Shown piece by piece: positions 10,501 through 25,909 of a stretch of 64,000 nucleotides of DNA. The notes under the pieces are model-generated. The model made no database searches, was not told the origin of the DNA, and saw only the letters and a program-made list of their open reading frames with translations. The stretch comes from Pyronema omphalodes. Lineage: Eukaryota; Ascomycota; Pezizomycetes; Pezizales; Pyronemataceae. The DNA lies in NCBI GenBank assembly GCA_024516155.1, contig JAJJXM010000002.1, forward strand, positions 1 through 64,000. The letters are read 5' to 3'. The stretch's first letter is position 1; the number at the start of each line of letters is the position of its first letter. Made by a program: the position numbers and the translations under genes.

Positions 10501-10619
10501 GAGCAAAATATCATAGGCCGTAGTAAATAGCGGTCGCTTGCGAGTGACCGTCTGTGACCCAGGTCATGGTCACCCATAATCACCTGCGGTCCGTCTGGTC
10601 CATGGTTCCTCAAAGACTG

Positions 10620-10633
10620 CCGGTCCTTGTCCT
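10620..10633. repeat. Left 14-bp target-site duplication of the LINE
   Basis: CCGGTCCTTGTCCT here is repeated exactly at 25991-26004, directly after the LINE's A-rich tail. A 14-bp duplication flanking a 5'-truncated, tail-bearing element is what target-primed reverse transcription leaves. Confidence 0.9.
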
Positions 10634-10917
10634 GGCTACTCGAACGTACGGAAAAGGCGTGCGGTTTCGAAGCAGTCGAAAAAGTAACAGTCCCGGACCG
10701 CTTCCGTCGCTTCCCCGTGGTTATCGCACCCAGGGCTGAAGCTGAGACTTTTGCCCGGAACTGGAGAAATCTTACGTCCACGACATGCATCTGGACAGAT
10801 GGCTCTAGAATGGAGGGACATACGGGAGCGGGGGTGGTCCGCTACATCAACGGTGCCTTTCGTTCCTCCCAGCACTACTTGGGCCGTCATACAGAGGTCT
10901 TTGACGCTGAGCTCTAC

Positions 10918-10922
10918 GCCAT
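10918..10922. repeat. GCCAT target duplication, left of Gypsy element 1
   Basis: GCCAT flanks the left LTR and recurs at 18561-18565 after the right LTR. In the LINE these bases belong to the codons for Y-A-I in RNase H, so the insertion point is exact. Confidence 0.92.
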
Positions 10923-11190
10923 TATCAGAATCCGTATCCACGGTTACTGACGACAGGCAGCGCGGGGGTTTCGGCGGCGAGGAGAGCGGCGGCGGGTTAG
11001 GTAAGGCTGGTAAGTTGGGAATGGGCAAGGGTTTGTGGGCTGGGAAATCACAGGTGAGTTTGGAGAGATGGGAAATCACAAGGGAACTTTTGTAGATAGG
11101 ATTGTGGTAAATAGAAACTTGATTGCGTGAAGAAATAAACTACATACAAATTTCCTCCTCTTATACTTGTTCCTTCATGACTCGTGACTC

Positions 11191-11216
11191 AGCATTCTCC
11201 GCCTGCGGAGAATGCT
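11191..11216. repeat. Perfect 12-bp inverted repeat in the LTR
   Basis: AGCATTCTCCGC, a 2-nt spacer, then its exact reverse complement. It recurs at 18039-18064 in the other LTR. It lies just upstream of the TATA-like site in element orientation, so it may be a promoter element or an RNA/DNA hairpin; the role is inferred. Confidence 0.8.
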
Positions 11217-11222
11217 TCCAAT

Positions 11223-11530
11223 GCTAACCGCCGTGATACTACATACATGACCAACATTCCCCAACATTTGCCAACCGCCGTGATTCCAAATAAGAAAGCA
11301 AGATAACTAACCGCCATAATTCCAAATAATAATAACAAGGAAAGAGTACATACCAAAAGAGATAACTACCGGCTAACCGCCGTGATTCCAAATAGCAAAG
11401 AAAGAGTACATACCGAAAGAGATAACTTCCTGGCTAACCGCCGTGATTCCAAATAGTAAAGAAAGAGTACATACCAAAAGAGAGAAGTAAAAGATTCCAA
11501 CAATTTCCTAGCCGCCGTAATACCTAAAAG
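11223..11530. repeat. Degenerate repeats inside the element 1 LTR (3' copy)
   Basis: About six occurrences of a TAACCGCCGTGATTCCAAATA-like core. Two adjacent units have a 60-61 bp period and share AAAGAGTACATACC. Tandem motifs in an LTR U3 often act as enhancers; that is inference. The same array lies at 18071-18378. Confidence 0.8.
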
Positions 11531-11571
11531 AAATCCAAATAAGAAATAACTCCGAACATATGAAAATCCTC

Positions 11572-11594
11572 GGCAAGGGGCCCAGCCCCTTGCC
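11572..11594. repeat. 9-bp hairpin in the LTR
   Basis: GGCAAGGGG, a 5-nt spacer, then CCCCTTGCC. It sits just beyond the ORF3 stop codon in element orientation, and again in the other LTR at 18420-18442. Confidence 0.75.
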
Positions 11595-11608
11595 CTAACC
11601 CTATCCCT

Positions 11609-12676
11609 TCACTTCATGACAGCGTAACAGGTTGCTAGGGTGATGACGATCACCCATAGCCCTGCGGTGGTGACGGCGGAGGCCAGGAGCATGTCACGGG
11701 AGCGTTGTGACATAAGCCCCCCCCTCCAGGCCGAGACTCCGGCGAGGCCGCAGGCAGTCCTCAACGCGGGCCTCCGGATGGGGGACCGTCCCCGATACTG
11801 CCTTCCCCGACGTCGGCGACGTACGACGTCCTGGGTGATGTCCCCGAGGACATAAGGCGGTATTTGCTCCTGTTGGTGTCCTAAGGGGGGCGCCGTTATT
11901 TGTTCTTGTTGGTGCCCTGAGGAGAACGGGGGTATTTGATCTTGTTGGTGCCCTGAGGCGGGGGGCTCCGGGGGATCCGAACAAGGGGCGGATGTCAGGT
12001 CGTTGGTTGGTCGGTAGTCGACGGTGGGGAGATGCTGTTCCGGCTCCGCTGTCTGATAGAAAGACAGGTTGATCGCCACCTTCTCGTGGTCCGAGGGTCC
12101 CGTCATCATAATCACTGGGAGTTGGTGTCGGATCGTATGGAGGGTGGAGTCCTCCGATTCCAGTTCGCGGGGACGGGGTGGTTCGTTTTCCTGATTTTCC
12201 GTAGGGACGGGAGGTTCCTTTCCTGTCCCGGGCTCGTCCTTGCAGGGTGGTATCGTTGCCGGGGTTTCCGTGGGGGGTTTCCATCCTCTGATACCGCATC
12301 TCTGGTCGTGTCCGTCTTTGTTGACCAGGAATTTACACACATTGCAGAGTCTCTTTCCTTTCTGCCATGCCTTGCAGGCCTTTTGCGGGTCCATCCTTCG
12401 GTGTCGGATCACCCATTCTAACTCGGCGTCATGTAGCTGCCCGCAGCTACATGATTTTTTTATGCGTGCCGCAATTGCTTGCGCCACCGCTGGGAAATGA
12501 TTGTTGTTTAATTTCGATTGGAGGTGAATGGAGCAGGAGTCGTTGTTGCAGAACGACCAGTGTAGTTCTGCGTGCGGGATCGTGGGGTGAGGGGATTTCT
12601 TTTCTGCCGGGGGAGTAGGGGTTCGGTACCAGCCCAAAGAGGACGGGGGGTCCTCGGAGTTCGTTCTATCGTCCAT
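11609..12676 (-). CDS. ORF3 of Gypsy element 1: Cys-rich protein with LTR-encoded transmembrane tail
   Basis: A 355-residue frame directly after pol. Its ATG shares the A of the pol stop codon (TAATG, 12674-12678), the arrangement used for coupled termination-reinitiation. The N-terminus is Cys/His-rich: C43, C48, C76, C78, C101, C111, C114, H123 and C127 could form one or two metal sites. The middle is Pro-rich with three G-H-Q-Q-[DE]-Q-I repeats. Then comes a basic stretch (V-V-R-R-R-R-R-G-R) and a hydrophobic segment at about residues 330-353, followed by M-K and the stop. The last 34 residues lie inside the 3' LTR. No signal peptide is evident, so a tail-anchored topology is likelier than a classical Env glycoprotein. 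The family is not recognised. The long intact frame argues for a real product. Confidence 0.75.
   Translation of the reverse strand: MDDRTNSEDPPSSLGWYRTPTPPAEKKSPHPTIPHAELHWSFCNNDSCSIHLQSKLNNNHFPAVAQAIAARIKKSCSCGQLHDAELEWVIRHRRMDPQKACKAWQKGKRLCNVCKFLVNKDGHDQRCGIRGWKPPTETPATIPPCKDEPGTGKEPPVPTENQENEPPRPRELESEDSTLHTIRHQLPVIMMTGPSDHEKVAINLSFYQTAEPEQHLPTVDYRPTNDLTSAPCSDPPEPPASGHQQDQIPPFSSGHQQEQITAPPLGHQQEQIPPYVLGDITQDVVRRRRRGRQYRGRSPIRRPALRTACGLAGVSAWRGGLMSQRSRDMLLASAVTTAGLWVIVITLATCYAVMK
11713..11728 (-). promoter_or_regulatory. Polypurine tract of Gypsy element 1
   Basis: In element orientation GGAGGGGGGGGCTTA directly precedes the 3' LTR, the expected place of the plus-strand primer. It also encodes W-R-G-G-L of ORF3. 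Confidence 0.8.
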
Positions 12677-15600
12677 TACAGCTGTGGGGCAGGTTTATTA
12701 GGGTACCTGCGGTGGAATTGGGTGATGGCGTCGGGGGAGTTTTGGAAATTGTCGGCGGGGTACCAGGTCGTATCGGGGTCGTGGAAACCCGTCCACTTAA
12801 CTCGATATTGTATCTGACCCCGGTGGCGTCGAGAATCCACTATCTCCTCAACTTCCCACTCTTCCTCGTCGTCGAGGACAATCGGTAGCGGAGGGGGCTG
12901 AATATGGCCTGGGATGGTGGTCGAAGTGGGTTGAGACGGTTCTAGAAGGGAGATGTGAAATACTGGATGGATCTTTGCGTTTGGGGGGAGGTCCAGTTTA
13001 TAAGCTCGCGACCCTACCTTAGACAAGATAGTGTAGGGCCCCAATAGCTTGTAATCGAGCTTGTTGGAGGGTCGGGTGGTTTTCACATTCTTCCTCTTCA
13101 GCCAGACCCGATCTCCCACTCGAAGGACCGGATCCGGGTGTCGATGCCGGTTCGCCTGTTCTGCATGAGCAGTCTGGGCATAGTGGACCTCTGCCTTCAG
13201 ATCCTCGTGAAGTCGGTTGAGGGCGCCAACATATCTGGAGACCTCGGGGTTTCCTTCCGCGACTTCACCCAGCGGCTGGGTAAAACGGGGATGATATCCG
13301 AAATTCGCAAAGAAGGGGGACACCTTGGTCGTTCCTGAGCGGGAGTTGTTGTAGCAGAACTCCGCCATAGGAAGGAGTTGGTTCCAATTGTCCTGTTGAT
13401 AGTTACAATACGCCCTGAGGTATTGTTCGAGGATCGCATTGACCCTCTCTGTCTGTCCGTCGGACTCTGGGTGAAACGCCGTACTCAGGTTCCTCGTGGT
13501 TCCCATTGCCTCCATAACCCTCTTCCAGAACTGAGAGGTGAATAGAGACCCCCGATCCGAGATGATGCTGCTCGGGAGTCCGTGGGCCCGTACCACATGT
13601 GTGAGAAACCCGTCCGCAAGTTCCCTGGGTCCCATAGTGTCCTTACATGCTACAAAGTGCGCCATCTTCGTCAAGCGGTCCACAATCACCCATATCGCAT
13701 TCATTCCCCCATCTTCCGGAAGACCTGTGATAAAATCCATGGAGATGGATTCCCATGGTCTTTCTGGAATCTGTAACGGTCGTAAGAGGCCGAAGGGGGC
13801 GTGCTTAATGGGCTTGATACGTTTACAGGTATCACAGTAGTCGACATATCGAGTCACATACTGTCGTTGTTGTGGCCAATAAAAATTCCGGCTGACCAAC
13901 TCCAAGGTCCTTGCCCTTCCCGGATGCCCCGCGGCCTGGGAGTCGTGATGCTGTCGTAAAATTTGTAACCTCAGGTCGTCGTCGTCAGGGACCCATATCA
14001 ATCCCTCGTATAGGAGTAACCCATCCTTTTCCTCGCATAACCCCAAGGGGACCCTATTGTCTCGGGCTATCCCTTCCCGAAGTTTGCGGATTACCTCCTG
14101 GAGTTCCGTATCGGTCCTCGTTTTTTCCCGAATTTTGGTAAGGAGGGGGGTGTCCGGGGTGAGTTTTATCAATTGTGTCTCGTTCACATGAAAGACTTCC
14201 TGGGGAAGGAGGACTCGGCTTCGGTTCTGCCGGTGCTTCATCTCCCCTTCCCAGGGAGAGTCTCCTGACTCTCGGGACAATATGTCGGGTTTTCCTGCCA
14301 ACTTCCCCGGACGATACGTGATCGTGAAGTCATAGTTAGCCAGTTGTTCCGCCCATCGGGCCTGTCGGAGGTTGAGGTCCCTCTTTGTTTGCCAATATTC
14401 TAGGTTTTTATGGTCTGACAGTATCCGGATACTGTGTCTCGTCAATTTGCAGTACGTCGACCACTTGTCCAATGCCTCCACTATTGCCAGGAGCTCCTTA
14501 TCGTGGATGTCGTAATTGAGCTCCGCTTCTTTTAATTTTCTTGAAAAATAGGCAAGGGGGTGCAGTACGTTGGAGTCGTCGGGTTGTGAGCAGACTGCCC
14601 CGATGGCATAGTCTGAGGCGTCTGTCTCCAGGGTGAGTGGCCGATCCGGGTCGAAATGTTGCAGGATCGGCTGGGATATCATTGCCGTCTTCAGTTGCTC
14701 AAAGGCCCGTTGTGTCTCGTCGTTCCATTCCCAGGGTACCTGTTTTTTCGTCAATCGTGTCAATGGCGTGGTGATCTTGCTGAAATCCCGGATGAATCGA
14801 CGGTAAAAGTTGGCGAATCCCAGGAAACTTTGGACTCCCTTCACATTTACCGGTTCCTTCCATTCCTTAACCGCCCTAATTTTCTCGGGGTCCATCTGCA
14901 ACCCTGTGGGGGAGATGATGTATCCCAGGTATTCCGTCTTTTTTGTGTGGAATTCACATTTCGAGGGTTTCAGGGTCAGTCCTACGTCCCTTAACCTTTC
15001 CAGGACCATGCGTACGTGTCTTTGATGCTCCGCCAGATCATCCGAGTAGATCAGTATGTCGTCGAGATAGGCGATGCAAAAGATGTCAAGGTAATCACTT
15101 AAGACTTCGTTCATCCATCGTTGAAACGAAGCTGGAGCATTTGTCAAACCAAATGGCATCACCAAATACTCGTATAGACCGTACTTGGTACGGAACGCAG
15201 TTTTCCATTCATCTCCTGTGGCTATTCGGAGGTTATGGTATGCATCTCGCACATCTAATTTGGTATAGATCTTGGCGTTGGAAAGTCTATCCAACGCTTC
15301 CCCTATCAGCGGGAGTGGGGTGCGATCCTTGATTGTGATTTCGTTGAGTCGTCGGTAGTCGACGCATAACCGTAGGGTACCATCCTTTTTCTTAACGAAA
15401 TGGATTGGGGCTCCCGCTGGAGACGTCGACCGTCGGACCCAACCCCTCTTTTCATTCTCTTCCAAGTAATCCCTTAGTACTCGCAGGCGTTCCTCATCGA
15501 GGGCTCGCAGGGGTTCGAACGGCGGAACCTTTCCGTCCATCAAGGGGATCCTGTGGTCATGATGTCGGTGCGGAGGCAACCCTACCGCCTCTTTTTCCCT

Positions 15601-16641
15601 AAATACGGAGAGGTAATCTGCATATTCCGGTGGTATTATTTCTTCCAGGGAGTCAGGTTTGTTCTTCCCCGCTCGGATTATGGTACTCGCGAGTTCCATT
15701 TCCCCGGAAGTGGCAATTGATTTGGCGGGAGCGGTTTCCCAGTTCCCCGGCTCTTCCTGGTTGGTTGGCGCAGTAGCGGTTGGTTTGGCGGGAGCGGTTT
15801 CCCAGTTCCCCGGTCCTTTCTGGTTGGCTGGCGCTTGCGGGGGTTGCCGCGAAGCGCACTGAGGCGAGTCGGGATCGACCTCGGTGGATTCCGCGCGCCT
15901 AGATCCCTGTACGCTTTCCATATCCTCGTCCTCCGACTCTTCCACTTCTTCTCCTTCTTCATCCTCTTCTATACTTTCTCCCCAGATCTCTTGGATGCGA
16001 AGCTCATCTTCCTCATCCATCTGGAGCATCTCCTTCGGCCCTTCCATACCATAGGCGTGCTCCGCTTCCTCGTGTATCCGTTGATTATATTCTTTTTCTG
16101 CCCCCCGTTCCGACACGGTTGTGGCATGGGGCGAGGTAGGAAGGCAGTTCTTTCCGCATTTCTCGGAGTTGAAGACAATCCTTCCTTCTTTCCAGTCGAT
16201 GCTGGGGTTGTGTTTCCGCAACCAAGGCAGTCCCAGGATAATGGGTGCGTTGCCAATGGTAATACAGTGGAGCCGAATATCTTCCCTATGGTCGTTGATC
16301 ACCATGGTCACCATGGCATCGTGGGTCACTGGGCCCCCATCCAATTCCCGTCCGTCTACAGCGAGAACCTTTCGTGGGGTTAATTTTTTCGCGCAGGGCA
16401 ATCCCTGCTGTTTCACATATTTTCGATCTATAAAATTCTCCGTGGCCCCGCAGTCGATCATGGCCGTTGTGTGGTATTCTTTCTTATTTCGTCCGATTAA
16501 TTTTACTCGCAGGATGATTTTTTCGTTTCTTCCGTATGGTCCTACACTCGAGATTCTATCCGCCGGTCCTGCCGTGGTTGAACTGGTGGGCGACAGTTGC
16601 CCCAGGAATCCACCTTTTCCTTTTATTCCTGGGGATTCTCT
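12676..16641 (-). CDS. pol: Pol of Gypsy element 1 (protease, RT, RNase H, integrase, chromodomain)
   Basis: Read in the -1 frame from the slippery site; 1,321 residues from the frameshift, or 1,261 from an internal ATG at 16461. Protease active site D-C-G-A-T-E-N-F lies directly after that ATG, so the ATG alone would lose the N-terminal part of the protease and frameshifting is the sensible route. Reverse transcriptase has L-D-V-R-D-A-Y, F-G-L-T-N-A-P and catalytic Y-L-D-D. RNase H has E-T-D-A-S-D and K-E-L-L-A-I. Integrase has an H-H...C-D-T-C zinc site and a D...D...E core (M-D-F-I-T-G, I-I-S-D-R-G, the E of D-G-Q-T-E-R). The C-terminus is a chromodomain (W-E-V-E-E-I-V to H-R-R-Y-P), which in this family directs integration to marked chromatin. 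No stops or frameshifts are seen. Confidence 0.96.
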   Translation of the reverse strand, partial: RESPGIKGKGGFLGQLSPTSSTTAGPADRISSVGPYGRNEKIILRVKLIGRNKKEYHTTAMIDCGATENFIDRKYVKQQGLPCAKKLTPRKVLAVDGRELDGGPVTHDAMVTMVINDHREDIRLHCITIGNAPIILGLPWLRKHNPSIDWKEGRIVFNSEKCGKNCLPTSPHATTVSERGAEKEYNQRIHEEAEHAYGMEGPKEMLQMDEEDELRIQEIWGESIEEDEEGEEVEESEDEDMESVQGSRRAESTEVDPDSPQCASRQPPQAPANQKGPGNWETAPAKPTATAPTNQEEPGNWETAPAKSIATSGEMELASTIIRAGKNKPDSLEEIIPPEYADYLSVFREKEAVGLPPHRHHDHRIPLMDGKVPPFEPLRALDEERLRVLRDYLEENEKRGWVRRSTSPAGAPIHFVKKKDGTLRLCVDYRRLNEITIKDRTPLPLIGEALDRLSNAKIYTKLDVRDAYHNLRIATGDEWKTAFRTKYGLYEYLVMPFGLTNAPASFQRWMNEVLSDYLDIFCIAYLDDILIYSDDLAEHQRHVRMVLERLRDVGLTLKPSKCEFHTKKTEYLGYIISPTGLQMDPEKIRAVKEWKEPVNVKGVQSFLGFANFYRRFIRDFSKITTPLTRLTKKQVPWEWNDETQRAFEQLKTAMISQPILQHFDPDRPLTLETDASDYAIGAVCSQPDDSNVLHPLAYFSRKLKEAELNYDIHDKELLAIVEALDKWSTYCKLTRHSIRILSDHKNLEYWQTKRDLNLRQARWAEQLANYDFTITYRPGKLAGKPDILSRESGDSPWEGEMKHRQNRSRVLLPQEVFHVNETQLIKLTPDTPLLTKIREKTRTDTELQEVIRKLREGIARDNRVPLGLCEEKDGLLLYEGLIWVPDDDDLRLQILRQHHDSQAAGHPGRARTLELVSRNFYWPQQRQYVTRYVDYCDTCKRIKPIKHAPFGLLRPLQIPERPWESISMDFITGLPEDGGMNAIWVIVDRLTKMAHFVACKDTMGPRELADGFLTHVVRAHGLPSSIISDRGSLFTSQFWKRVMEAMGTTRNLSTAFHPESDGQTERVNAILEQYLRAYCNYQQDNWNQLLPMAEFCYNNSRSGTTKVSPFFANFGYHPRFTQPLGEVAEGNPEVSRYVGALNRLHEDLKAEVHYAQTAHAEQANRHRHPDPVLRVGDRVWLKRKNVKTTRPSNKLDYKLLGPYTILSKVGSRAYKLDLPPNAKIHPVFHISLLEPSQPTSTTIPGHIQPPPLPIVLDDEEEWEVEEIVDSRRHRGQIQYRVKWTGFHDPDTTWYPADNFQNSPDAITQFHRRYPNKPAPQL
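16600..16634 (-). promoter_or_regulatory. Frameshift-stimulating stem-loop, element 1
   Basis: In the mRNA sense, CCCCAGGAAT, a 15-nt A/G-rich loop, then ATTCCTGGGG: a perfect 10-bp stem. It begins 6 nt after the slippery heptamer, within the usual 5-9 nt spacing, and the gag stop codon sits at the stem/loop junction. Confidence 0.85.
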
Positions 16642-17531
16642 TTTCCCGACGTCTCACCGAGTCCCTCGTCTACCAATGTAGTTTCCGCTGCTCTGAATAA
16701 TTTCTTACTTGGGCACTTCGCAGCGTAGTGTCCCACCTTCCCACAGTTAAAACATTCGTTATTCCGCTTCCGCCTATCCTCCTCCGTCCTATCCCTTGGT
16801 TTCGGTCGACGAGTGGAATCTAATTCCATTGGTTCGGGGTCGGAGAGTCGAGAGTCGTGTCCCTGCCCCTTAAGATGGGGGTGGTGATAGAATTGAGGTT
16901 CATATCGAGTCCTCAGGGTTCGGAAGTTGAATAGTCGGTTGTCTAACGCTATGGCCTTGTTGGCGAACTCCGTGAGATCCGTTGGTCGTTCGTCAAGGAG
17001 TGCCAACTGTCGTTGGACGTCTGTGTTTAGTCCATCACTGAATTGATCGATGTAGGTCTCGTCATTATATCTTAAATCGGATTTGATCCTTTGAAATTCG
17101 GCCCAGTATGCAGCGGCGGATCGCGCGCCCTGCCTGATCATCTTAAACTTTCTTCTTGCTACTTCTTTTGAGTCGGCTTCCCCGAAAGCCCTACTGACAG
17201 CAGTCTTAAAGGTCTCCCAGGTCGTGTATACGCTTTTCCCGTCCTTGATGGACGGCTCGATCCATGCCCAAGCGTTACCTCTACAGCGGGAGCTCGCATA
17301 GTTCACCTTTTTCTGTTCGGTGTCGAATCTATTGCCTTCACAATTGAACTTCAGTTCGCATTGTGTCAGGAATGCCCTCAGCTTGGTCCGTTCACCGTAG
17401 TACAGCTCCGGGTCCTCCACCTTGGGGTTACTGGTTGTCGTGGGGCGATGGAGTTGAATGAGGATCTGGTTCAACTGCTCCTGGGTCATCGTGACCGGAG
17501 TGACAAGTCCCAATCCTGCCGGGGTCGCCAT
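16623..17531 (-). CDS. gag: Gag of Gypsy element 1 (nucleocapsid polyprotein)
   Basis: 302 residues from the first in-frame ATG. The frame is open for another 78 codons upstream but has no ATG there. That upstream segment contains a repeated CAGAAAACC-like tract and is probably leader. The central region (W-A-W-I-E-P, W-E-T-F-K-T-A, A-A-A-Y-W-A-E-F-Q-R) is the retrotransposon capsid fold. A single CCHC zinc knuckle, C-F-N-C-G-K-V-G-H-Y-A-A-K-C, lies near the C-terminus. It packages element RNA in a virus-like particle. Translation ends at 16623, or shifts to pol at 16641-16647. Confidence 0.92.
   Translation of the reverse strand: MATPAGLGLVTPVTMTQEQLNQILIQLHRPTTTSNPKVEDPELYYGERTKLRAFLTQCELKFNCEGNRFDTEQKKVNYASSRCRGNAWAWIEPSIKDGKSVYTTWETFKTAVSRAFGEADSKEVARRKFKMIRQGARSAAAYWAEFQRIKSDLRYNDETYIDQFSDGLNTDVQRQLALLDERPTDLTEFANKAIALDNRLFNFRTLRTRYEPQFYHHPHLKGQGHDSRLSDPEPMELDSTRRPKPRDRTEEDRRKRNNECFNCGKVGHYAAKCPSKKLFRAAETTLVDEGLGETSGKENPQE
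16641..16647 (-). promoter_or_regulatory. GGGAAAA slippery heptamer for -1 frameshifting, element 1
   Basis: The gag codons read TCG GGA AAA GAG, so the heptamer is in the X-XXY-YYZ register. The two frames overlap by only about 30 nt and this is the only canonical slippery site I see in that overlap. After a -1 slip translation continues as R-E-S-P-G-I-K into protease. Confidence 0.88.
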
Positions 17532-17770: not shown

Positions 17771-18560
17771 TATCAGAATCCGTATCCACGGTTACTGACG
17801 ACAGGCAGCGCGGGGGTTTCGGCGGCGAGGAGAGCGGCGGCGGGTTAGGTAAGGCTGGTAAGTTGGGAATGGGCAAGGGTTTGTGGGCTGGGAAATCACA
17901 GGTGAGTTTGGAGAGATGGGAAATCACAAGGGAACTTTTGTAGATAGGATTGTGGTAAATAGAAACTTGATTGCGTGAAGAAATAAACTACATACAAATT
18001 TCCTCCTCTTATACTTGTTCCTTCATGACTCGTGACTCAGCATTCTCCGCCTGCGGAGAATGCTTCCAATGCTAACCGCCGTGATACTACATACATGACC
18101 AACATTCCCCAACATTTGCCAACCGCCGTAATTCCAAATAAGAAAGCAAGATAACTAACCGCCATAATTCCAAATAATAATAACAAGGAAAGAGTACATA
18201 CCAAAAGAGATAACTACCGGCTAACCGCCGTGATTCCAAATAGCAAAGAAAGAGTACATACCGAAAGAGATAACTTCCTGGCTAACCGCCGTGATTCCAA
18301 ATAGTAAAGAAAGAGTACATACCAAAAGAGAGAAGTAAAAGATTCCAACAATTTCCTAGCCGCTGTAATACCTAAAAGAAATCCAAATAAGAAATAACTC
18401 CGAACATATGAAAATCCTCGGCAAGGGGCCCAGCCCCTTGCCCTAACCCTATCCCTTCACTTCATGACAGCGTAACAGGTTGCTAGGGTGATGACGATCA
18501 CCCATAGCCCTGCGGTGGTGACGGCGGAGGCCAGGAGCATGTCACGGGAGCGTTGTGACA
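17771..18560 (-). repeat. 5' LTR of Gypsy element 1 (790 bp)
   Basis: It is the promoter-bearing copy. A TATA-like site TATAAG is at 18008-18013 (minus). It has the same internal repeats (18071-18378) and hairpins as the other LTR. Confidence 0.95.
18008..18013 (-). promoter_or_regulatory. LTR TATA box, element 1
   Basis: TATAAG in element orientation. The presumed transcript start (self-primer sequence ACGCAATCAA) lies 37 nt further on. Confidence 0.6.
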
Positions 18561-18565
18561 GCCAT
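18561..18565. repeat. GCCAT target duplication, right of Gypsy element 1
   Basis: Matches 10918-10922. The LINE RNase H frame resumes here. Confidence 0.92.
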
Positions 18566-19367
18566 CTGGCGAGGTCTCAAGGAGTTCCACTCCAACCACT
18601 TTTGGGACCCCAACTCGGACACCAAAGCAATCGTTTTCTCCGACGCCCAAGCTGCCCTTAAGCGTCTGGAGACTGATACACCCGGCCCTGGCCAAGAGCT
18701 CGCCAAACTTATCTCGCTCGAAGCCTACGACCTGCTCGTTTATTCCGGTATCGACGTGGAATGCCATTGGATTCCGGGTCACAGTGATATCCCCGAAAAC
18801 GAAGAAGTGGACCGAGTAGCGAAGGAAGCATCGAAGCATCGATGTGACTCCCTTATGCTCAAACGGTGTGACGACCCGGTTTGTGCTGTCCCAGCGTGGG
18901 CATCCCTGGCGCACCTCAACCGGATCGCTACGGAAACAACATCGATCATCACTCGTCGATGGATCAGGCAGCAAACAGCGACCAGCCGTTCCTTCCGCCC
19001 CCGCCAAAAATGGGGAATCCGCCCCGAGCTGGTCTCCCTCCCCAAACGTCGAGCAGCTGTGTTCCTCCAGCTTGCTTCAGGCCACGCTCTCATCGGCACC
19101 CATCTGGTGCGCGTGAAGAAAAAGGACTCGGACCGGTGCTGGTGGTGCCAGTCGGACAAAAGACAAACCAGAGGCCATCTCTTCGGAGAATGCCCCCGCT
19201 GGCGTAAGGAATTCAAGGCGTTGAAAGAGGAGGTTGAGAGAATAAGGGGACGAAGGGGGAGGCCGAGAGGAAGGCTAAAGGTGGTGGATTTGTTTAGGGA
19301 CGATCGACTCACGAAAGCGATCTTGGAATTTTTATCTGCAACGGAGATAGGCAGAAGATACGTATAG

Positions 19368-19619: not shown

Positions 19620-19802
19620 TGTCACGGCTCGCCTCATACGCCATCACTCGGCGCCTTCCCCCCCGCCCCGCGTCACGAATTATCACTCGGTCCTCCGCAG
19701 AGCTTACCCGAGCGCCCGCAATTGTGCGAACAGCGACCGAGTGAGTTTAGCAAAAGCAGTCACACGCATTTAGTTTCTTGGTATCTAAGAGGAGGAAAGA
19801 TG

Positions 19803-19810
19803 TATATAAG
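19803..19810 (+). promoter_or_regulatory. LTR TATA box, element 2
   Basis: TATATAAG, in a purine-rich context. The self-primer sequence, presumed transcript 5' end, starts 55 nt downstream. The same box is at 25524-25531 in the 3' LTR. Confidence 0.7.
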
Positions 19811-19857
19811 AGGACTTATCCTCCCTGCGTTCTGTTTTGTTTTCCTTTTCTTTCCTC

Positions 19858-19867
19858 ACTCAGTTAT
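19858..19867 (+). promoter_or_regulatory. Self-primer sequence (predicted mRNA 5' end), element 2
   Basis: ACTCAGTTAT, exact reverse complement of the primer-binding site at 20186-20195. Confidence 0.65.
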
Positions 19868-20185
19868 TTGTTTATCTATTTAAATAAATTCCTTCGTCTT
19901 CTCGATCCTCGCTACGTTCTCGCCTCCGTCTCCGTCTTCCGGCTTCGCTTCGTGAAGACCGCCCTCGTCACGACACCCTGCCCTCGCTTCGCTACCGAGC
20001 CTCCCTCCGGTGACACCTCTTGCCCCTAAACACGGAGCATCGAGGAACTGCTGCACGACACAGTTCCCGATATCCTACGTTGGCGCTGTCTCAGAGTCCC
20101 TGTCCCCCGATCGAGTCCCTCGTCTCCGATTGCGAGCCCCCGGGTTCCCCGCTCCCCCGTCGAACCCCCGCGCTCCCGTTACAAC

Positions 20186-20195
20186 ATAACTGAGT
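20186..20195 (+). promoter_or_regulatory. Self-priming primer-binding site of element 2
   Basis: ATAACTGAGT lies 2 nt after the LTR end, the usual spacing left for integrase 3' processing. It complements the LTR self-primer over 10 nt. No tRNA-type TGG start is present. Confidence 0.75.
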
Positions 20196-20270
20196 TATCA
20201 AGCATCCGTCGGCTCTGCCTCCTCTCCCTTGATTACTCTTCGACTTCCCCCTCCGTTCCTCCCTTCGTCC

Positions 20271-20441
20271 ATGCTCCATAACCTCTGGTTTTACCAATTC
20301 GCCAAACTCGTACCTGAATTCCTTTCCCTCGGTATCCCCGCTATCGTCGACGAAATCGAGATAGCCCGCCAGCTCGGAATCGAATTCTCGGCTACCCGAA
20401 TCACGTTCGACGACACAAAACTCACCTGGCACTTACGATAA
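20271..20441 (+). CDS. Leader ORF upstream of gag, element 2
   Basis: A 56-residue frame ending 16 nt before the gag ATG. It begins M-L-H-N-L-W-F-Y-Q-F-A-K-L-V and continues with a mixed hydrophobic/acidic helix-like stretch (A-I-V-D-E-I-E-I-A-R-Q-L-G-I). Codon use (CTC, ATC, GCC, TTC) resembles gag and pol rather than random sequence. It could be a translated uORF that tunes Gag, or an eroded N-terminal piece. No known family is recognised. Confidence 0.35.
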   Translation: MLHNLWFYQFAKLVPEFLSLGIPAIVDEIEIARQLGIEFSATRITFDDTKLTWHLR

Positions 20442-20457
20442 ATCGCCAACCCCAAAC

Positions 20458-21585
20458 ATGGACGATCAAGAAATCGTCATCGCGCTGTTCCTGAACGCAG
20501 CGCAAAGGGACGAGATCAATAGAGACCCCACAAAATTAAAAGATCTCCGTAATGCAGTCGAGGACTACAAACGAGACTGCCAGAAATTGACCGATCTCCA
20601 GGCAGAATTGACAGATTCCAGGAAGGACAACTCGGATTACGCAAAACGAATCTCCGACCTGGAACGGGATCTCGGATCCGCAAATACTACAATTCGCCTG
20701 CTACAATCGATCACGGAAAAATCGGCCTCCCCCTCGATGAGACCGATCGAGCTCCCCCACCCGCCCGAATTCACCGGAGACCGAAAGGAACTCCCCAACT
20801 TCGTCTCCAAGGTTAGGTCCAAGTTGGCTGGAGACTCAGCCCGCTTCACCGACGACCAACATAAGCTCCGCTACCTCTACGGTTACCTGAAAGGAAACGC
20901 ACAAAATCAGGTCCAACCCTACGTACTCACGGACAAAATCAATCTAAAAGACGCCGAAGAACTGATCACCATCCTTGAGTCCGCCTTCGGAGACCCAGAC
21001 CAGGTCGGCACCGCCTCGATGGAGCTCGACAAACTAAACCAGGGCAATAAAGAATTCAGCGTATACTATGCCGAATTTCAACGAATCATGGCCATCCTCA
21101 ACTTCGACGCAAACGCAAAAAAGGCTGCCCTAAAGAGAGGACTCTCGAGAGAATTACAATCGAGCCTCGTCTACCAAGCGGACGAACCACAAGACTTCAC
21201 CAAGTTCGTCGAACTCTGCCAAAAGCTGGACTACCGGCTCAGAGCCCACGGCACCCTTTCCAAACGAACAATTCCGACGCTCACCCCACGCACTCTCCCT
21301 ACAGCCACTCGACCATCAGCTCACCCAACAAACTCGAATAGTGGCAACTACGGCTCCGCACCCATGGACCTCTCTGCATCGCAGAAAGCCCAGAATCAAC
21401 GCCGCCGGGACGAGCGAATGGCAAAGGGGTTATGCCTCTACTGTGGGTCGGCAGACCACTTCAAAAACGACTGCCCCTCCCTAGCAGCGAACACCTCTCG
21501 GAAGTTACGTCTCGCCGCCGCGGACCTCCTATCACCCCCCCAGGAAACCTCCTCTATCCCCAGCCCCGAGGAGGGAAAAGAATAG
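20458..21585 (+). CDS. gag: Gag of Gypsy element 2
   Basis: 375 residues from an ATG in good context. Residues ~35-95 are coiled-coil-like (heptads of L, R, D, E). The capsid region follows (F-T-G-D-R-K-E-L-P-N-F, Y-Y-A-E-F-Q-R). A CCHC knuckle, C-L-Y-C-G-S-A-D-H-F-K-N-D-C, is near the C-terminus. The protein forms the particle shell. The last codons read GAG GGA AAA GAA TAG, placing a slippery heptamer directly before the stop. Confidence 0.93.
   Translation: MDDQEIVIALFLNAAQRDEINRDPTKLKDLRNAVEDYKRDCQKLTDLQAELTDSRKDNSDYAKRISDLERDLGSANTTIRLLQSITEKSASPSMRPIELPHPPEFTGDRKELPNFVSKVRSKLAGDSARFTDDQHKLRYLYGYLKGNAQNQVQPYVLTDKINLKDAEELITILESAFGDPDQVGTASMELDKLNQGNKEFSVYYAEFQRIMAILNFDANAKKAALKRGLSRELQSSLVYQADEPQDFTKFVELCQKLDYRLRAHGTLSKRTIPTLTPRTLPTATRPSAHPTNSNSGNYGSAPMDLSASQKAQNQRRRDERMAKGLCLYCGSADHFKNDCPSLAANTSRKLRLAAADLLSPPQETSSIPSPEEGKE
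21573..21579 (+). promoter_or_regulatory. GGGAAAA slippery heptamer for -1 frameshifting, element 2
   Basis: In the gag frame it reads G-GGA-AAA two codons before the stop. A -1 slip continues as R-I-V-H-H-Q-P-V-G, which is the open pol frame. Confidence 0.88.
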
Positions 21586-24500
21586 TCCACCATCAGCCCG
21601 TTGGCCCTCCTGGTGGACCTGCCCCGGCCTCTTCGTTCCCCTCGTCCCAAAATAAACTCTACGTATCAGCAAGTTCCCTATCAATTAGTCAAGAAAATGA
21701 AATGGATGGTAGTCATTTAGTCGTACCCTGCACTTTGACCAACCGTGACATCAAAATTGATACCCGTGCCCTTGTTGATTGTGGTTGTACGGGACTCTCC
21801 TTCATGAATGAGACCTTCGCTCGCCAGCACAATCTCCCCCGCTACCAGTTAAAATCCCCAAAAATAGTTGAAGTGATAGACGGTCGCCCAATCTCCTCCG
21901 GCGACATCACAGAATATGTGAGGATCCCATGCACCATCGGTGATCACCACGAAATCCTGACCGCCTACTTAACCTCCCTCGGTCACTACCCCCTCGTCCT
22001 CGGGATCCCTTGGTTGAAGAAGCATGACGTTACCATCAACTTCGCAACCAACGACATCCAATTCCGCTCCCCTAACTGCCTGCCCCACCGCACCGCCGTC
22101 AAGGCACCCCCAATCAAGGGCTTACCACCAGATCGACGAAACAAAATCTGCGCAATCTCAGCCACGACGTTCAAAAGAATCGTCAGGAACAATAACCAAC
22201 GATACGGTAACGTCGAACCCTTTCACCTATCCCTAAACGAAATCAACATGGCCCTACGAGACCCTGCGGACGCCAAACCAGACTTAAAGACCATCGTTCC
22301 CACCGAATACCACGAGTTCCTGGAAATTTTCGAAAAGGTTAACGCCGACAAACTACCCCCACACCGCCCCTGTGACCACAAAATCCCGCTCGAGGACGGA
22401 TTCAAACCTCCGTTCGGACCACTCTACTCCCTCTCACGTCCGGAACTGGAAGAACTCAAGAGGTGGATAGACGAAAATATGAGCAAAGGATTCATACGAA
22501 CGTCCTCCTCCCCGGCCGCCGCCCCAATCCTATTCGTCCGTAAAGGTGATGGCTCCCTACGCCTCGTAGTGGACTATCGCGGGATAAACGAGGGCACCAT
22601 CAAAAATCGCTACCCCCTCCCCTTAATGCAGGATACGCTGATGAACCTGTCCCGAGCAAAGTGGTTCACAAAGCTTGATATTCGAGGGGCCTACAACCTC
22701 ATCCGAATGGCGGAGGGAGAGGAGTGGAAGACCGCCTTTCGCACCCGCTACGGCCTCTTCGAATCCTTGGTAATGCCGTTCGGGCTAACCAACGCTCCCG
22801 CAACCTTCCAAAATTTCATCAACGACACCTTAGCACCCTATCTGGACCGCTTCTGCACGGCATACCTAGACGACACCCTAATCTACTCCGACACGCTCGA
22901 AGAGCACCAGCAACACGTCGCCATGGTCCTGGAAGCTTTCCGAAAAGCGGGCCTCCACCTAAAACCCGAAAAGTGCGAATTTCACCAGCAGCAGGTCAAA
23001 TACCTTGGCCTGATCATCAGCACGGAAGGCATCAAGATGGACCCAGAAAAAATCACCGCAGTGAGAGAATGGGACCCACCAAAAAACCTCAAAGACGTCC
23101 GCGCCTTCCTCGGTTTCGCCAATTTTTATCGCCGCTTTGTACGGAACTATTCGAAAATCGTGCAACCCCTCACCCTCCTGACACGAAAAGGAGTACCGTT
23201 TGCGTGGGACAGCCCACAACAACAGGCTTTCGACGAACTCAAAGCAACCTTCACCTCCGCACCAGTCCTCGCCCGCTTCGACCCCGATCGGGACGTCATA
23301 GTAGAAACGGATGCCTCCGACTTCGTATCGGCTGGCGTCCTATCACAGTACGATGCTAACGACGTTCTACATCCCGTGGCTTATTTCTCAAAAAAGCACT
23401 CCCCCGCGGAGTGTAACTACGACATCTACGACAAGGAGTTGATGGCAATTGTCCGAGCATTCGAGGAGTGGCGGCCAGAACTACAATCGGTCATCAACCC
23501 TGTGCGGGTTCTGTCCGACCACAAAAATTTGGAATACTTCACGACGACCAAGCTCCTCAACAGGCGTCAAGCCCGGTGGTCGCAATTCCTCTCACAGTTC
23601 AACTTTAAGATCGTCTATCGCCCCGGAACTGCGGGAGGAAAACCAGATGCTCTAACCAGGCGATCCGGAGATCTGCCCAAGGAAGGGGATGACCGCTCTC
23701 TGGCTAATCATACAACAGTGCTCAAACCAGAAAACATCCTCCTACACACCTCCGCCGCCACCGTTTCGCCCCTTTCGCCCCACCGCCCCGAGCACCCCGC
23801 CCCTACACCCCGTCCCGATGCACCGCTCCTACAGCGACTCTTCCTCGACGCCTACGCCGCCGACCCCTTTCCCAACAGAGTACTACAGATGCTCAACGAC
23901 GGAACCAAGCACTGTAGGGACATCACACTCGCCGAGTGCGAAAGACAAGACAACCACCTCCTCTACCGTCGCCGAATTTGGGTCCCCGACCACGAGCCCC
24001 TCAAACTACACCTCTTAAAACAACACCACGACACACCCATCGCCGGACACCCAGGAAGGTCCAAAACGCTCGAGCTGTTGCTAAGGACCTACACTTGGCC
24101 CAACATGCGTAAAGACGTGGACCGTTACACCCGGAATTGTCACATCTGCCAACGCTCCAAGCCCAACAGACACGCCCCCTTTGGTGTCCTCCGCCCCCTA
24201 CCCATTCCCGACCGACCGTGGCAAGACATCTCGATGGACTTTGTCACCGGGCTACCCTGGTCCAACGGAAACGATGCTATCTGGGTTGTCGTGGACCGTT
24301 TAACAAAAGAAAGACACTTTGTAGCCTGCCAGACCAACGTCGACGCAAAAGAACTCGCCAACCTGTTCGTCAAACACATCTTTCGACTCCACGGCTTACC
24401 CCTAACGATAATCTCCGATCGAGGCCGCAGTTCTCCGCCCTTTTCTGGAAACACCTCTGCCGTCGACTGGGAATCGAACCTCGGTTGTCGACCGCCTTCC

Positions 24501-25300
24501 ACCCTCAAACGGACGGCCAGACCGAGCGGATGAACGCAACCATGGAGCAATACCTGAGAGCTCACGTAAACTACTTACAGGACGACTGGGCAGAATGGCT
24601 CCCCCTGGCAGAGTTCGCCGCCAACAACCATGCGTCCGAAACCACCGGTTCCTCCCCCTTTTTCGCCAACAAAGGATTCGACCCCCGCTGCCAGTTCGAC
24701 CTGACGCCCGCCGCCACAAACGACACCAACGACCGCCGCGCTCTGGCCACATCCAAAATCCTCTCGGAGATCCACGACCATCTACGATCCGAAATAACTC
24801 GGGCCAATCTCCGCCATCAAGACAACGCCGACAAGCACCGCCTACCTTCACCGAACTACCAGGTGGGTGACCTCGTATGGCTAGACGCCAGGAATTGGAA
24901 GACCAGACGCCCCTCCAAAAAACTCGACAGTAAACGTCACGGTCCCTTCAAGGTAACCGCGAAGATATCCCCCTACACTTATCGTCTCGAGATTCCGACC
25001 ACAATGAAATGTCACGACGTGTACCACGTATCCCTCCTCGAACCCGCCGCCAACGATCCGTACCCCGGGCAACACCCCGAACCCCCTCCACCGATAGAAA
25101 TCGACGGCGAGAACGAATACTTTATCGAGGCAATCCTAGACTCCCGAATCCATCGCCGCAAACTACAATACATGGTGAAATGGGTAGGGTATGACTTACC
25201 GGAATGGGAACCAGCCGAGCTACACACCGATAGCCAAGCCGTCGACACCTTCCACGAAAAATACCCTGACAAACCAGGCCCCCTACAATCGACAGCCTAA
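21579..25300 (+). pseudogene. pol: Pol of Gypsy element 2 (protease, RT, RNase H, integrase, chromodomain), one frameshift
   Basis: Protease active site is D-C-G-C-T-G. Reverse transcriptase has L-D-I-R-G-A-Y, F-G-L-T-N-A-P and Y-L-D-D. RNase H has E-T-D-A-S-D and K-E-L-M-A-I. Integrase has an H-H...C-H-I-C zinc site and the start of its core (S-M-D-F-V-T-G, I-I-S-D-R-G). Near 24425 the frame is lost directly after S-D-R-G and closes at 24533. The remaining integrase (F-S-A-L-F-W-K, D-G-Q-T-E-R) and a C-terminal chromodomain (Y-F-I-E-A-I-L-D to F-H-E-K-Y-P) continue in the neighbouring frame to 25300. The pattern fits loss of one C in a run. With otherwise open frames and identical LTRs this is a very recent lesion or a sequencing error. 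Confidence 0.92.
21585..21618 (+). promoter_or_regulatory. Frameshift-stimulating stem-loop, element 2
   Basis: GTCCACCA, an 18-nt loop, then TGGTGGAC: a perfect 8-bp stem starting 5 nt after the slippery heptamer. Confidence 0.8.
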
Positions 25301-25330
25301 GATCCTACCTCGCCGGAGCTCGCGCCAAAC

Positions 25331-25340
25331 AGGGGGATCC
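25331..25340 (+). promoter_or_regulatory. Polypurine tract of Gypsy element 2
   Basis: AGGGGGATCC directly precedes the 3' LTR, the expected plus-strand primer site. Confidence 0.65.
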
Positions 25341-25904
25341 TGTCACGGCTCGCCTCATACGCCATCACTCGGCGCCTTCCCCCCCGCCCCGCGTCACGAA
25401 TTATCACTCGGTCCTCCGCAGAGCTTACCCGAGCGCCCGCAATTGTGCGAACAGCGACCGAGTGAGTTTAGCAAAAGCAGTCACACGCATTTAGTTTCTT
25501 GGTATCTAAGAGGAGGAAAGATGTATATAAGAGGACTTATCCTCCCTGCGTTCTGTTTTGTTTTCCTTTTCTTTCCTCACTCAGTTATTTGTTTATCTAT
25601 TTAAATAAATTCCTTCGTCTTCTCGATCCTCGCTACGTTCTCGCCTCCGTCTCCGTCTTCCGGCTTCGCTTCGTGAAGACCGCCCTCGTCACGACACCCT
25701 GCCCTCGCTTCGCTACCGAGCCTCCCTCCGGTGACACCTCTTGCCCCTAAACACGGAGCATCGAGGAACTGCTGCACGACACAGTTCCCGATATCCTACG
25801 TTGGCGCTGTCTCAGAGTCCCTGTCCCCCGATCGAGTCCCTCGTCTCCGATTGCGAGCCCCCGGGTTCCCCGCTCCCCCGTCGAACCCCCGCGCTCCCGT
25901 TACA
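25341..25904 (+). repeat. 3' LTR of Gypsy element 2 (564 bp)
   Basis: Same length as and apparently identical to 19620-20183. Confidence 0.95.
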
Positions 25905-25909
25905 ACGAG
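25905..25909. repeat. ACGAG target duplication, right of Gypsy element 2
   Basis: Matches 19615-19619. Confidence 0.88.

What the first reader, a model, noticed from the sequence alone, without database searches (positions are those of the whole stretch)
11609..12676. Third ORF in a chromovirus, with a Cys-rich head and a transmembrane tail encoded by the LTR
Chromodomain Gypsy elements normally stop after integrase-chromodomain. Here an intact 355-codon frame follows, with nine Cys/His residues in its first 130 residues, three G-H-Q-Q-[DE]-Q-I repeats, a basic stretch and a C-terminal hydrophobic helix. The last 34 residues, including the helix, lie inside the 3' LTR, so the same coding DNA is also in the 5' LTR upstream of the promoter. 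It occupies the env position but has no signal peptide or glycoprotein look. A tail-anchored nucleic-acid-binding protein could tether particles or cDNA to a membrane. I do not recognise the family.
Basis: partly seen in the sequence, partly recalled or inferred. Interest (0 to 1): 0.85.

Follow-up and report, generated by a model that had tools for sequence, protein, structure and literature searches.

The report
Extra membrane-tailed gene in fungal retrotransposon
A fungal jumping gene carries a third, actively maintained gene for a zinc-type, probably membrane-anchored protein whose last part is written inside the element's own terminal repeat, which suggests that these elements use a dedicated helper beyond the usual two genes.

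Summary
ORF3 is on the minus strand (12676..11609, 355 aa), directly after the integrase-chromodomain stop (shared bases, TAATG). Its last 33 codons and stop lie inside a 790-bp LTR. The element has a 5-bp target duplication and 2 LTR mismatches. ORF3 is not an accident: 49 of 116 match rows in the host genome are full length without a stop, and dN/dS is 0.43 for ORF3 and 0.22 for its zinc head (integrase 0.24). A second element family in the same genome (integrase end 77% identical, ORF3 about 37%) has the same layout, with ORF3 dN/dS 0.39. Three protein searches returned 66 proteins, one named (Pyronema domesticum). Conserved are three Cys/His clusters and a C-terminal hydrophobic helix read through the polypurine tract and the LTR edge. 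The GHQQ repeats are not conserved. The first Cys/His cluster (WCCH) also ends a distant Gypsy Gag. Structure searches found nothing. Most likely ORF3 is an accessory protein made by termination-reinitiation and anchored by its tail in an internal membrane, where it binds Gag or genomic RNA. Architecture and selection are shown; translation mode, membrane insertion, binding and function are inferred.

The parts
17771..18560 (-). 5' LTR (790 bp)
   Evidence: 99.75% identical to 10923-11712
10923..11712 (-). 3' LTR, beginning TGTCAC
10918..10922 (.). target duplication GCCAT (+ strand), second copy at 18561-18565
16623..17531 (-). gag, 302 aa from its first ATG; capsid and one CCHC knuckle, no WCCH match
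16641..16647 (-). GGGAAAA heptamer in the 30-nt gag/pol overlap, candidate -1 frameshift site
   Evidence: function inferred
12676..16653 (-). pol frame (first ATG 16461): protease, RT, RNase H, integrase, chromodomain
12706..12858 (-). chromodomain at the pol C-end
   Evidence: PF00385 E 4.6e-12; coordinates
12674..12678 (-). TAATG: pol stop overlapping the ORF3 start
11609..12676 (-). ORF3, 355 aa
12515..12565 (-). WCCH motif, residues 38-54 (W-x2-C-x4-C-x2-H)
12431..12451 (-). CxCx3H cluster, residues 76-82
12296..12346 (-). C2HC cluster, residues 111-127
11861..11953 (-). three GHQQ[DE]QI repeats, residues 242-272, not conserved in the family
11713..11727 (-). polypurine-type tract GGAGGGGGGGGCTTA, read by ORF3
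   Evidence: role inferred from its place before the 3' LTR
11609..11712 (-). part of ORF3 inside the LTR: 33 codons, stop and two bases
11636..11692 (-). C-terminal hydrophobic segment, residues 329-347

Best explanation
ORF3 is a genuine accessory gene of one clade of fungal chromoviruses. Ribosomes that finish pol restart at the overlapping or adjacent ATG and make a small amount of a separate protein (inferred from the junction). Its zinc-type head, which opens with a WCCH motif shared with a Gag C-terminus, faces the cytosol and binds Gag or the genomic RNA (inferred). A long low-confidence linker leads to a C-terminal helix, coded across the polypurine tract and the start of U3, which inserts after translation into an internal membrane (predicted). 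It thus scaffolds particle assembly, or the incoming complex, at a membrane. Because U3 of both new LTRs is copied from the 3' end of the RNA, selection on the translated 3' copy also renews the untranslated 5' copy (established reverse-transcription logic).
For: Selection: ORF3 dN/dS 0.43, 2dlnL 21.2 against omega 1, 22 copies; head 0.22, 22.6; family B 0.39, 49.2, and its C-terminal 50 residues 0.35, 7.4, 21 loci. Junction: TAATG in 37 of 38 family-A junctions read; TAA, 5 nt, ATG in 20 of 21 family-B loci; 79 ATGs lie between the 5' LTR and ORF3, against scanning. Head: W40, C43, C48, C76, C78, C111, C114, H123, C127 invariant in 11 full-length members. Gag link: hhalign 96.7%, E 3e-10 over 34 columns to the C-end of a 618-aa Gag. 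Tail: confident helix 324-354; best hydrophobic 19-mer ends 2-9 residues from the C-end in 23 of 26 listed proteins; LTR edge inside the frame in the 39 family-A loci shown and 5 of 5 family-B loci.
Against: No expression, localisation or binding data. The hydrophobic segment is only moderately hydrophobic: 9 of those 23 fall under 1.6. Family-A residues 291-355 do not reject omega 1 (2dlnL 0.6) and the middle is marginal (3.7). No TGGGA or GGGA in the 150 nt before the junction. No structural match gives a function. The Gag link rests on one 34-column motif, and the motif also occurs in geminivirus V2 (passage in PMC7831499). A spliced ORF3 message is not excluded.
Confidence: 0.42

Rival explanations
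1. ORF3 counters host silencing from a membrane site, its zinc head binding RNA or a silencing protein.
For: Geminivirus V2, described in PMC7831499 (passage) as able to suppress systemic RNA silencing, carries a WCCH motif; ORF3 matches the WCCH model weakly (17.5 bits, cut-off 22.4; 22.6 bits in the genome search). Fast evolution of the linker (dN/dS 0.60) would suit a conflict protein.
Against: The passage concerns residues 1-92 of V2 as needed for suppression, which cover only part of the motif (79-102). The head evolves slowly (0.22). The Gag match is much closer than the V2 resemblance.
Confidence: 0.2
2. ORF3 limits copy number or blocks competing copies: a Gag-like fragment on a membrane that traps Gag.
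For: Shared motif with a Gag C-terminus. Truncated Gag acts so in yeast Ty1 (recalled).
Against: Long-term conservation in two families and many relatives suits a helper better; the window's own gag shows no WCCH match.
Confidence: 0.13
3. ORF3 is an env-like protein for passage between cells.
For: It sits in the env position and has a C-terminal hydrophobic helix.
Against: The strongest hydrophobic segment of the whole protein is 8 residues from the C-end, which leaves no outer domain; the head is rich in Cys/His without an N-terminal hydrophobic stretch in the model or sequence. No signal-peptide program was run.
Confidence: 0.04
4. A chance frame, or a decaying captured gene without function.
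For: 67 of 116 match rows are partial or hold stops; family-A C-terminal part alone is not distinguishable from neutral.
Against: Omega 1 rejected in two families. Shifted frames give pN/pS 1.17 and 0.76 against 0.50 in frame (run with the frame-disturbed copy L036 still included). Invariant Cys/His across relatives.
Confidence: 0.02

Closest known systems
Chromoviruses (Ty3/Gypsy with an integrase chromodomain)
   Same: gag, protease, RT, RNase H, integrase, chromodomain, 5-bp duplications
   Different: A third gene after the chromodomain; the other chromodomain element in the window (19620-25906) has only about 40 bp between pol and LTR and no ORF3
LTR retrotransposons with a non-envelope ORF3, e.g. 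bdelloid rotifers (PMC5408684, passages)
   Same: Extra ORF after pol; some with transmembrane segments or membrane-targeting enzymes
   Different: Different protein types by their description (GDSL, DEDDy, paramyxovirus env, small TM ORFs); there ORF3s are said to be expressed typically from spliced messages. No sequence comparison was made here
nef of lentiviruses and sag of MMTV (recalled)
   Same: A 3' gene running into U3 of the 3' LTR
   Different: No sequence relation tested; here only the C-terminal 33 residues are in the LTR, and they form the hydrophobic tail
WCCH motif (Pfam PF03716), in Gypsy Gag C-ends and geminivirus V2
   Same: W-x2-C-x4-C-x2-H stretch at residues 38-54
   Different: Followed by two more Cys/His clusters and a hydrophobic tail; under the curated cut-off in the protein scan
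UAAUG gene pairs (silkworm SART1, influenza B M1/BM2, hypovirus; PMC5972666, passages)
   Same: Stop and start overlap as UAAUG in family A
   Different: Family B has 5 nt between stop and start; no TGGGA-type upstream motif found

Membership tests
Chromovirus | Ty3-type order with chromodomain at the integrase C-end | tested here: met
   RVT_1, RNase H, H2C2, Tf2-1 SH3, Chromo E 4.6e-12; rve and protease under their cut-offs
Chromovirus | flanking LTRs and short target duplications | tested here: met
   perfect 5-bp duplication in 14 of 16 copies with two full LTRs, of 20 examined
Retroviral env | signal peptide and a large outer domain before the anchor | tested here: not met
   hydropathy only: strongest segment 8 residues from the C-end; no signal-peptide program was run
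Tail-anchored protein | single hydrophobic segment close to the C-end | tested here: met
   moderate hydrophobicity, 9 of 23 under 1.6
Tail-anchored protein | post-translational membrane insertion | not testable with these tools
   needs a cell or in vitro test
Pfam WCCH | score at or above the curated cut-off of 22.4 bits | tested here: inconclusive
   17.5 bits in the protein scan, 22.1 and 22.6 with neighbours in the genome search
Coupled termination-reinitiation | start overlapping or within a few bases of the upstream stop | tested here: met
Coupled termination-reinitiation | upstream 18S-complementary motif (TURBS), as in caliciviruses and influenza B | tested here: not met
   no TGGGA or GGGA in 150 nt upstream; hypovirus, without this motif, counts as a case in the review
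Coupled termination-reinitiation | downstream product depends on the upstream stop | not testable with these tools
   needs a reporter
Nef/Sag-like U3 gene | 3' gene reading into U3 of the 3' LTR | tested here: met
   layout only, homology not tested

The most novel reading that the evidence does not exclude
In this clade a Gag-type zinc module has left Gag and become part of a separate, low-abundance, tail-anchored protein, so that an intracellular fungal retrotransposon builds or docks its particles on a membrane through a dedicated anchor whose transmembrane segment is coded by its own LTR.
Probability: 0.25. Interest if true: 0.8.

Novelty: new variant of a known kind. Interest (0 to 1): 0.6.

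Why it matters
Fungal Ty3/Gypsy elements are usually described as gag-pol only. A selected third gene with a Gag-like motif and an LTR-coded hydrophobic tail would show that intracellular elements too evolve dedicated membrane factors, and gives a compact, testable gene for asking where chromovirus particles assemble. It is also a clear case of one stretch of DNA serving at once as polypurine tract, integration end, U3 start and coding sequence.

Tried and rejected
Env reading: disfavoured on hydropathy and layout. Chance frame: rejected on dN/dS and conservation. GHQQ repeats as the core: rejected, they vary among relatives. Fold searches in PDB and BFVD and the second look by VIA-align: nothing significant. 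PDB sequence: one weak match, E 0.13, with the single protein, none with the profile. NCBIfam: nothing but one weak match at E 0.06 for one of five proteins. Viral contigs: 73 pattern matches, none a relative. P0018- and P0022-type ORF3 in the own genome: none at the strict limits set, 1e-40 and 1e-90; P0031 found 42 matches, not sorted one by one; the best rows lie at family-B places. RNA folding: 100 nt before the junction z -0.12, after it z 1.38, across it z -2.07 (6 of 200 shuffles as good); the last is suggestive only and was not followed across families.

Paper searches: ten counted. In their listings I saw no report of this ORF; the library lacks most subscription papers, so this does not show that none exists. 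PMC2774666 (passages) says that a clade of fungal chromoviruses carries additional genes, citing two works: one on dUTPase-containing elements of Phanerochaete (title seen only) and Havecker 2004, which is not held.

dN/dS choices: of 40 ORF3 sequences extracted (window included) 22 were used; 17 were dropped for stops or broken frames and L036 for a frame-disturbed stretch. pol used 11 of 18, gag 14 of 18. Family B used 21 loci, all chosen from rows that one search lists as full length without a stop (32 of 61 by my count). The omega-1 null was fitted at three kappa values on the free tree, so the 2dlnL values are approximate. The null was not run for integrase, chromodomain or the LTR tail alone.

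Full report
What is there. The element lies on the minus strand between LTRs 17771-18560 (5') and 10923-11712 (3'), 790 bp each with 2 mismatches, flanked by GCCAT on both sides. gag is 302 aa from its first ATG and overlaps the pol frame by 30 nt, with a GGGAAAA heptamer in the overlap. pol matches reverse transcriptase, RNase H, integrase zinc and SH3 domains and a chromodomain; protease and integrase core match under their cut-offs. ORF3 follows at 12676-11609, its ATG sharing a base with the pol stop (TAATG).

Is it a gene? The own-genome search gave 116 match rows; by my count 49 cover residues 1-354 without a stop. Of 20 copies fetched in wider context, 16 have two full LTRs by my filter; 14 of these have perfect 5-bp duplications, and 12 have 0-3 mismatches between their LTRs, so the family moved recently. 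In the codon-model fits dN/dS is 0.43 for ORF3 (22 copies), 0.22 for residues 1-130, 0.60 for 131-290, 0.68 for 291-355; it is 0.09 for RT, 0.24 for integrase, 0.23 for the chromodomain and 0.34 for gag. Omega 1 is rejected for ORF3 (2dlnL 21.2), for the head (22.6), for gag (12.6) and RT (56.1); it is marginal for the middle (3.7) and not rejected for 291-355 (0.6). So the gene as a whole is under purifying selection, while in family A this measure does not by itself show it for the tail.

A second family. A search with P0015 found family B in the same genome: 61 rows, 32 full length without a stop by my count. Its integrase end is 77% identical to that of family A over 375 residues and its ORF3 about 37%; the other chromodomain element of the window, which has no ORF3, is 43-45% in the integrase part. 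In family B the pol stop is followed after 5 nt by the ORF3 ATG in 20 of 21 loci; ORF3 dN/dS is 0.39 (2dlnL 49.2) and 0.35 for the C-terminal 50 residues (2dlnL 7.4). In 5 of 5 family-B loci looked at, GGAGGGGGGAGCTAC is followed by TGTCACG inside the frame. So a frame running through the polypurine tract and the LTR start is shared by two families, and in B selection on that end is supported.

Junction in family A. Of 40 loci (L009-L048) the junction was read in 38; 37 have TAATG, L047 reads TAATAG; L033 gave none and L044 is family B.

Relatives. Three protein searches gave 21, 26 and 48 hits (limits 1e-3, 0.01 and 1; the last scored only the candidates sharing most words), 66 distinct proteins in all. 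Nearly all are labelled jgi or ena without an organism; P0004 is from Pyronema domesticum (61% over 82% of the query). P0065 and P0066 are Gags; these and P0016 and P0064 were left out of the last alignment (62 relatives and the window). In 11 full-length members that I picked, W40, C43, C48, C76, C78, C111, C114, H123 and C127 are invariant and H51 and H82 nearly so; in the tail L311, G313, A316, S323, L330, A338 and W341 are invariant. In the wider set these positions are mostly kept and change mainly to Tyr, which I read as G-to-A decay of dead copies.

The Gag link. P0065 and P0066 (618 and 617 aa) match Retrotrans_gag, Ty3 capsid and CCHC. Their C-terminal part shows several W/C/C/H clusters by eye, the last of which aligns with the ORF3 WCCH stretch (hhalign 96.7%, E 3e-10, 34 columns). 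The window's own gag gives no WCCH match, and the 71 rows found in the own genome with P0065 all end before its residue 339, before that region (local matches, so not proof). A move of the module from Gag to ORF3 is possible but not shown. The 93 WCCH rows were not assigned one by one.

Structure. The AlphaFold2 model (39 sequences, mean pLDDT 59, pTM 0.33) is confident only for about residues 61-130 and the helix 324-354. Nothing significant matches in PDB or BFVD. The strongest hydrophobic 19-mer ends 2-9 residues from the C-end in 23 of 26 listed proteins; P0016, P0030 and P0040 lack this end, and 9 of the 23 score under 1.6.

How it probably works. Seventy-nine ATGs lie between the 5' LTR and ORF3, so scanning from the cap is unlikely. 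A UAAUG overlap, or a 5-nt gap, fits coupled termination-reinitiation as reviewed in PMC5972666 (passages); a spliced message is not excluded, and is the usual way in bdelloid elements according to PMC5408684 (passages). The protein would carry a cytosolic zinc head and a C-terminal anchor. I favour a membrane scaffold for Gag or genomic RNA (0.42). Anti-silencing and copy-number control are rivals. None of these functions is shown.

Novelty. Extra ORFs after pol are known in other LTR elements, additional genes are said to exist in a clade of fungal chromoviruses, and genes running into U3 are known for nef and sag (recalled). This protein family has no meaningful library match except the weak WCCH motif. 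I call it a new variant of a known kind.

Noticed in passing
window 10558-10922 and 18566-19364: The element sits inside another reading frame: joining the flanks gives one 388-aa open frame across the site. The right part weakly matches RNase_H and zf-RVT, both under cut-off, so the target is probably a non-LTR retrotransposon.
   Followed up: partly
window 19620-25906: A second chromodomain Gypsy element on the + strand with identical repeats at 19620-20185 and 25341-25906; its pol is split between two frames around 24.1-24.5 kb and it has no ORF3.
   Followed up: partly
P0065, P0066: Gags with several W/C/C/H clusters after the CCHC knuckles, looking like a tandem array.
   Followed up: partly
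window 16641-16647: GGGAAAA in the gag/pol overlap, in frame for a -1 shift into pol; with TAATG after pol the RNA may use two recoding steps.
   Followed up: no
window 15709-15834: Tandem 63-bp repeat (87% alike) inside the pol frame.
   Followed up: no
LTR positions 539-622 of family A against L049: One LTR block of about 85 bp is 75% identical between families A and B, perhaps the core promoter or R region.
   Followed up: no
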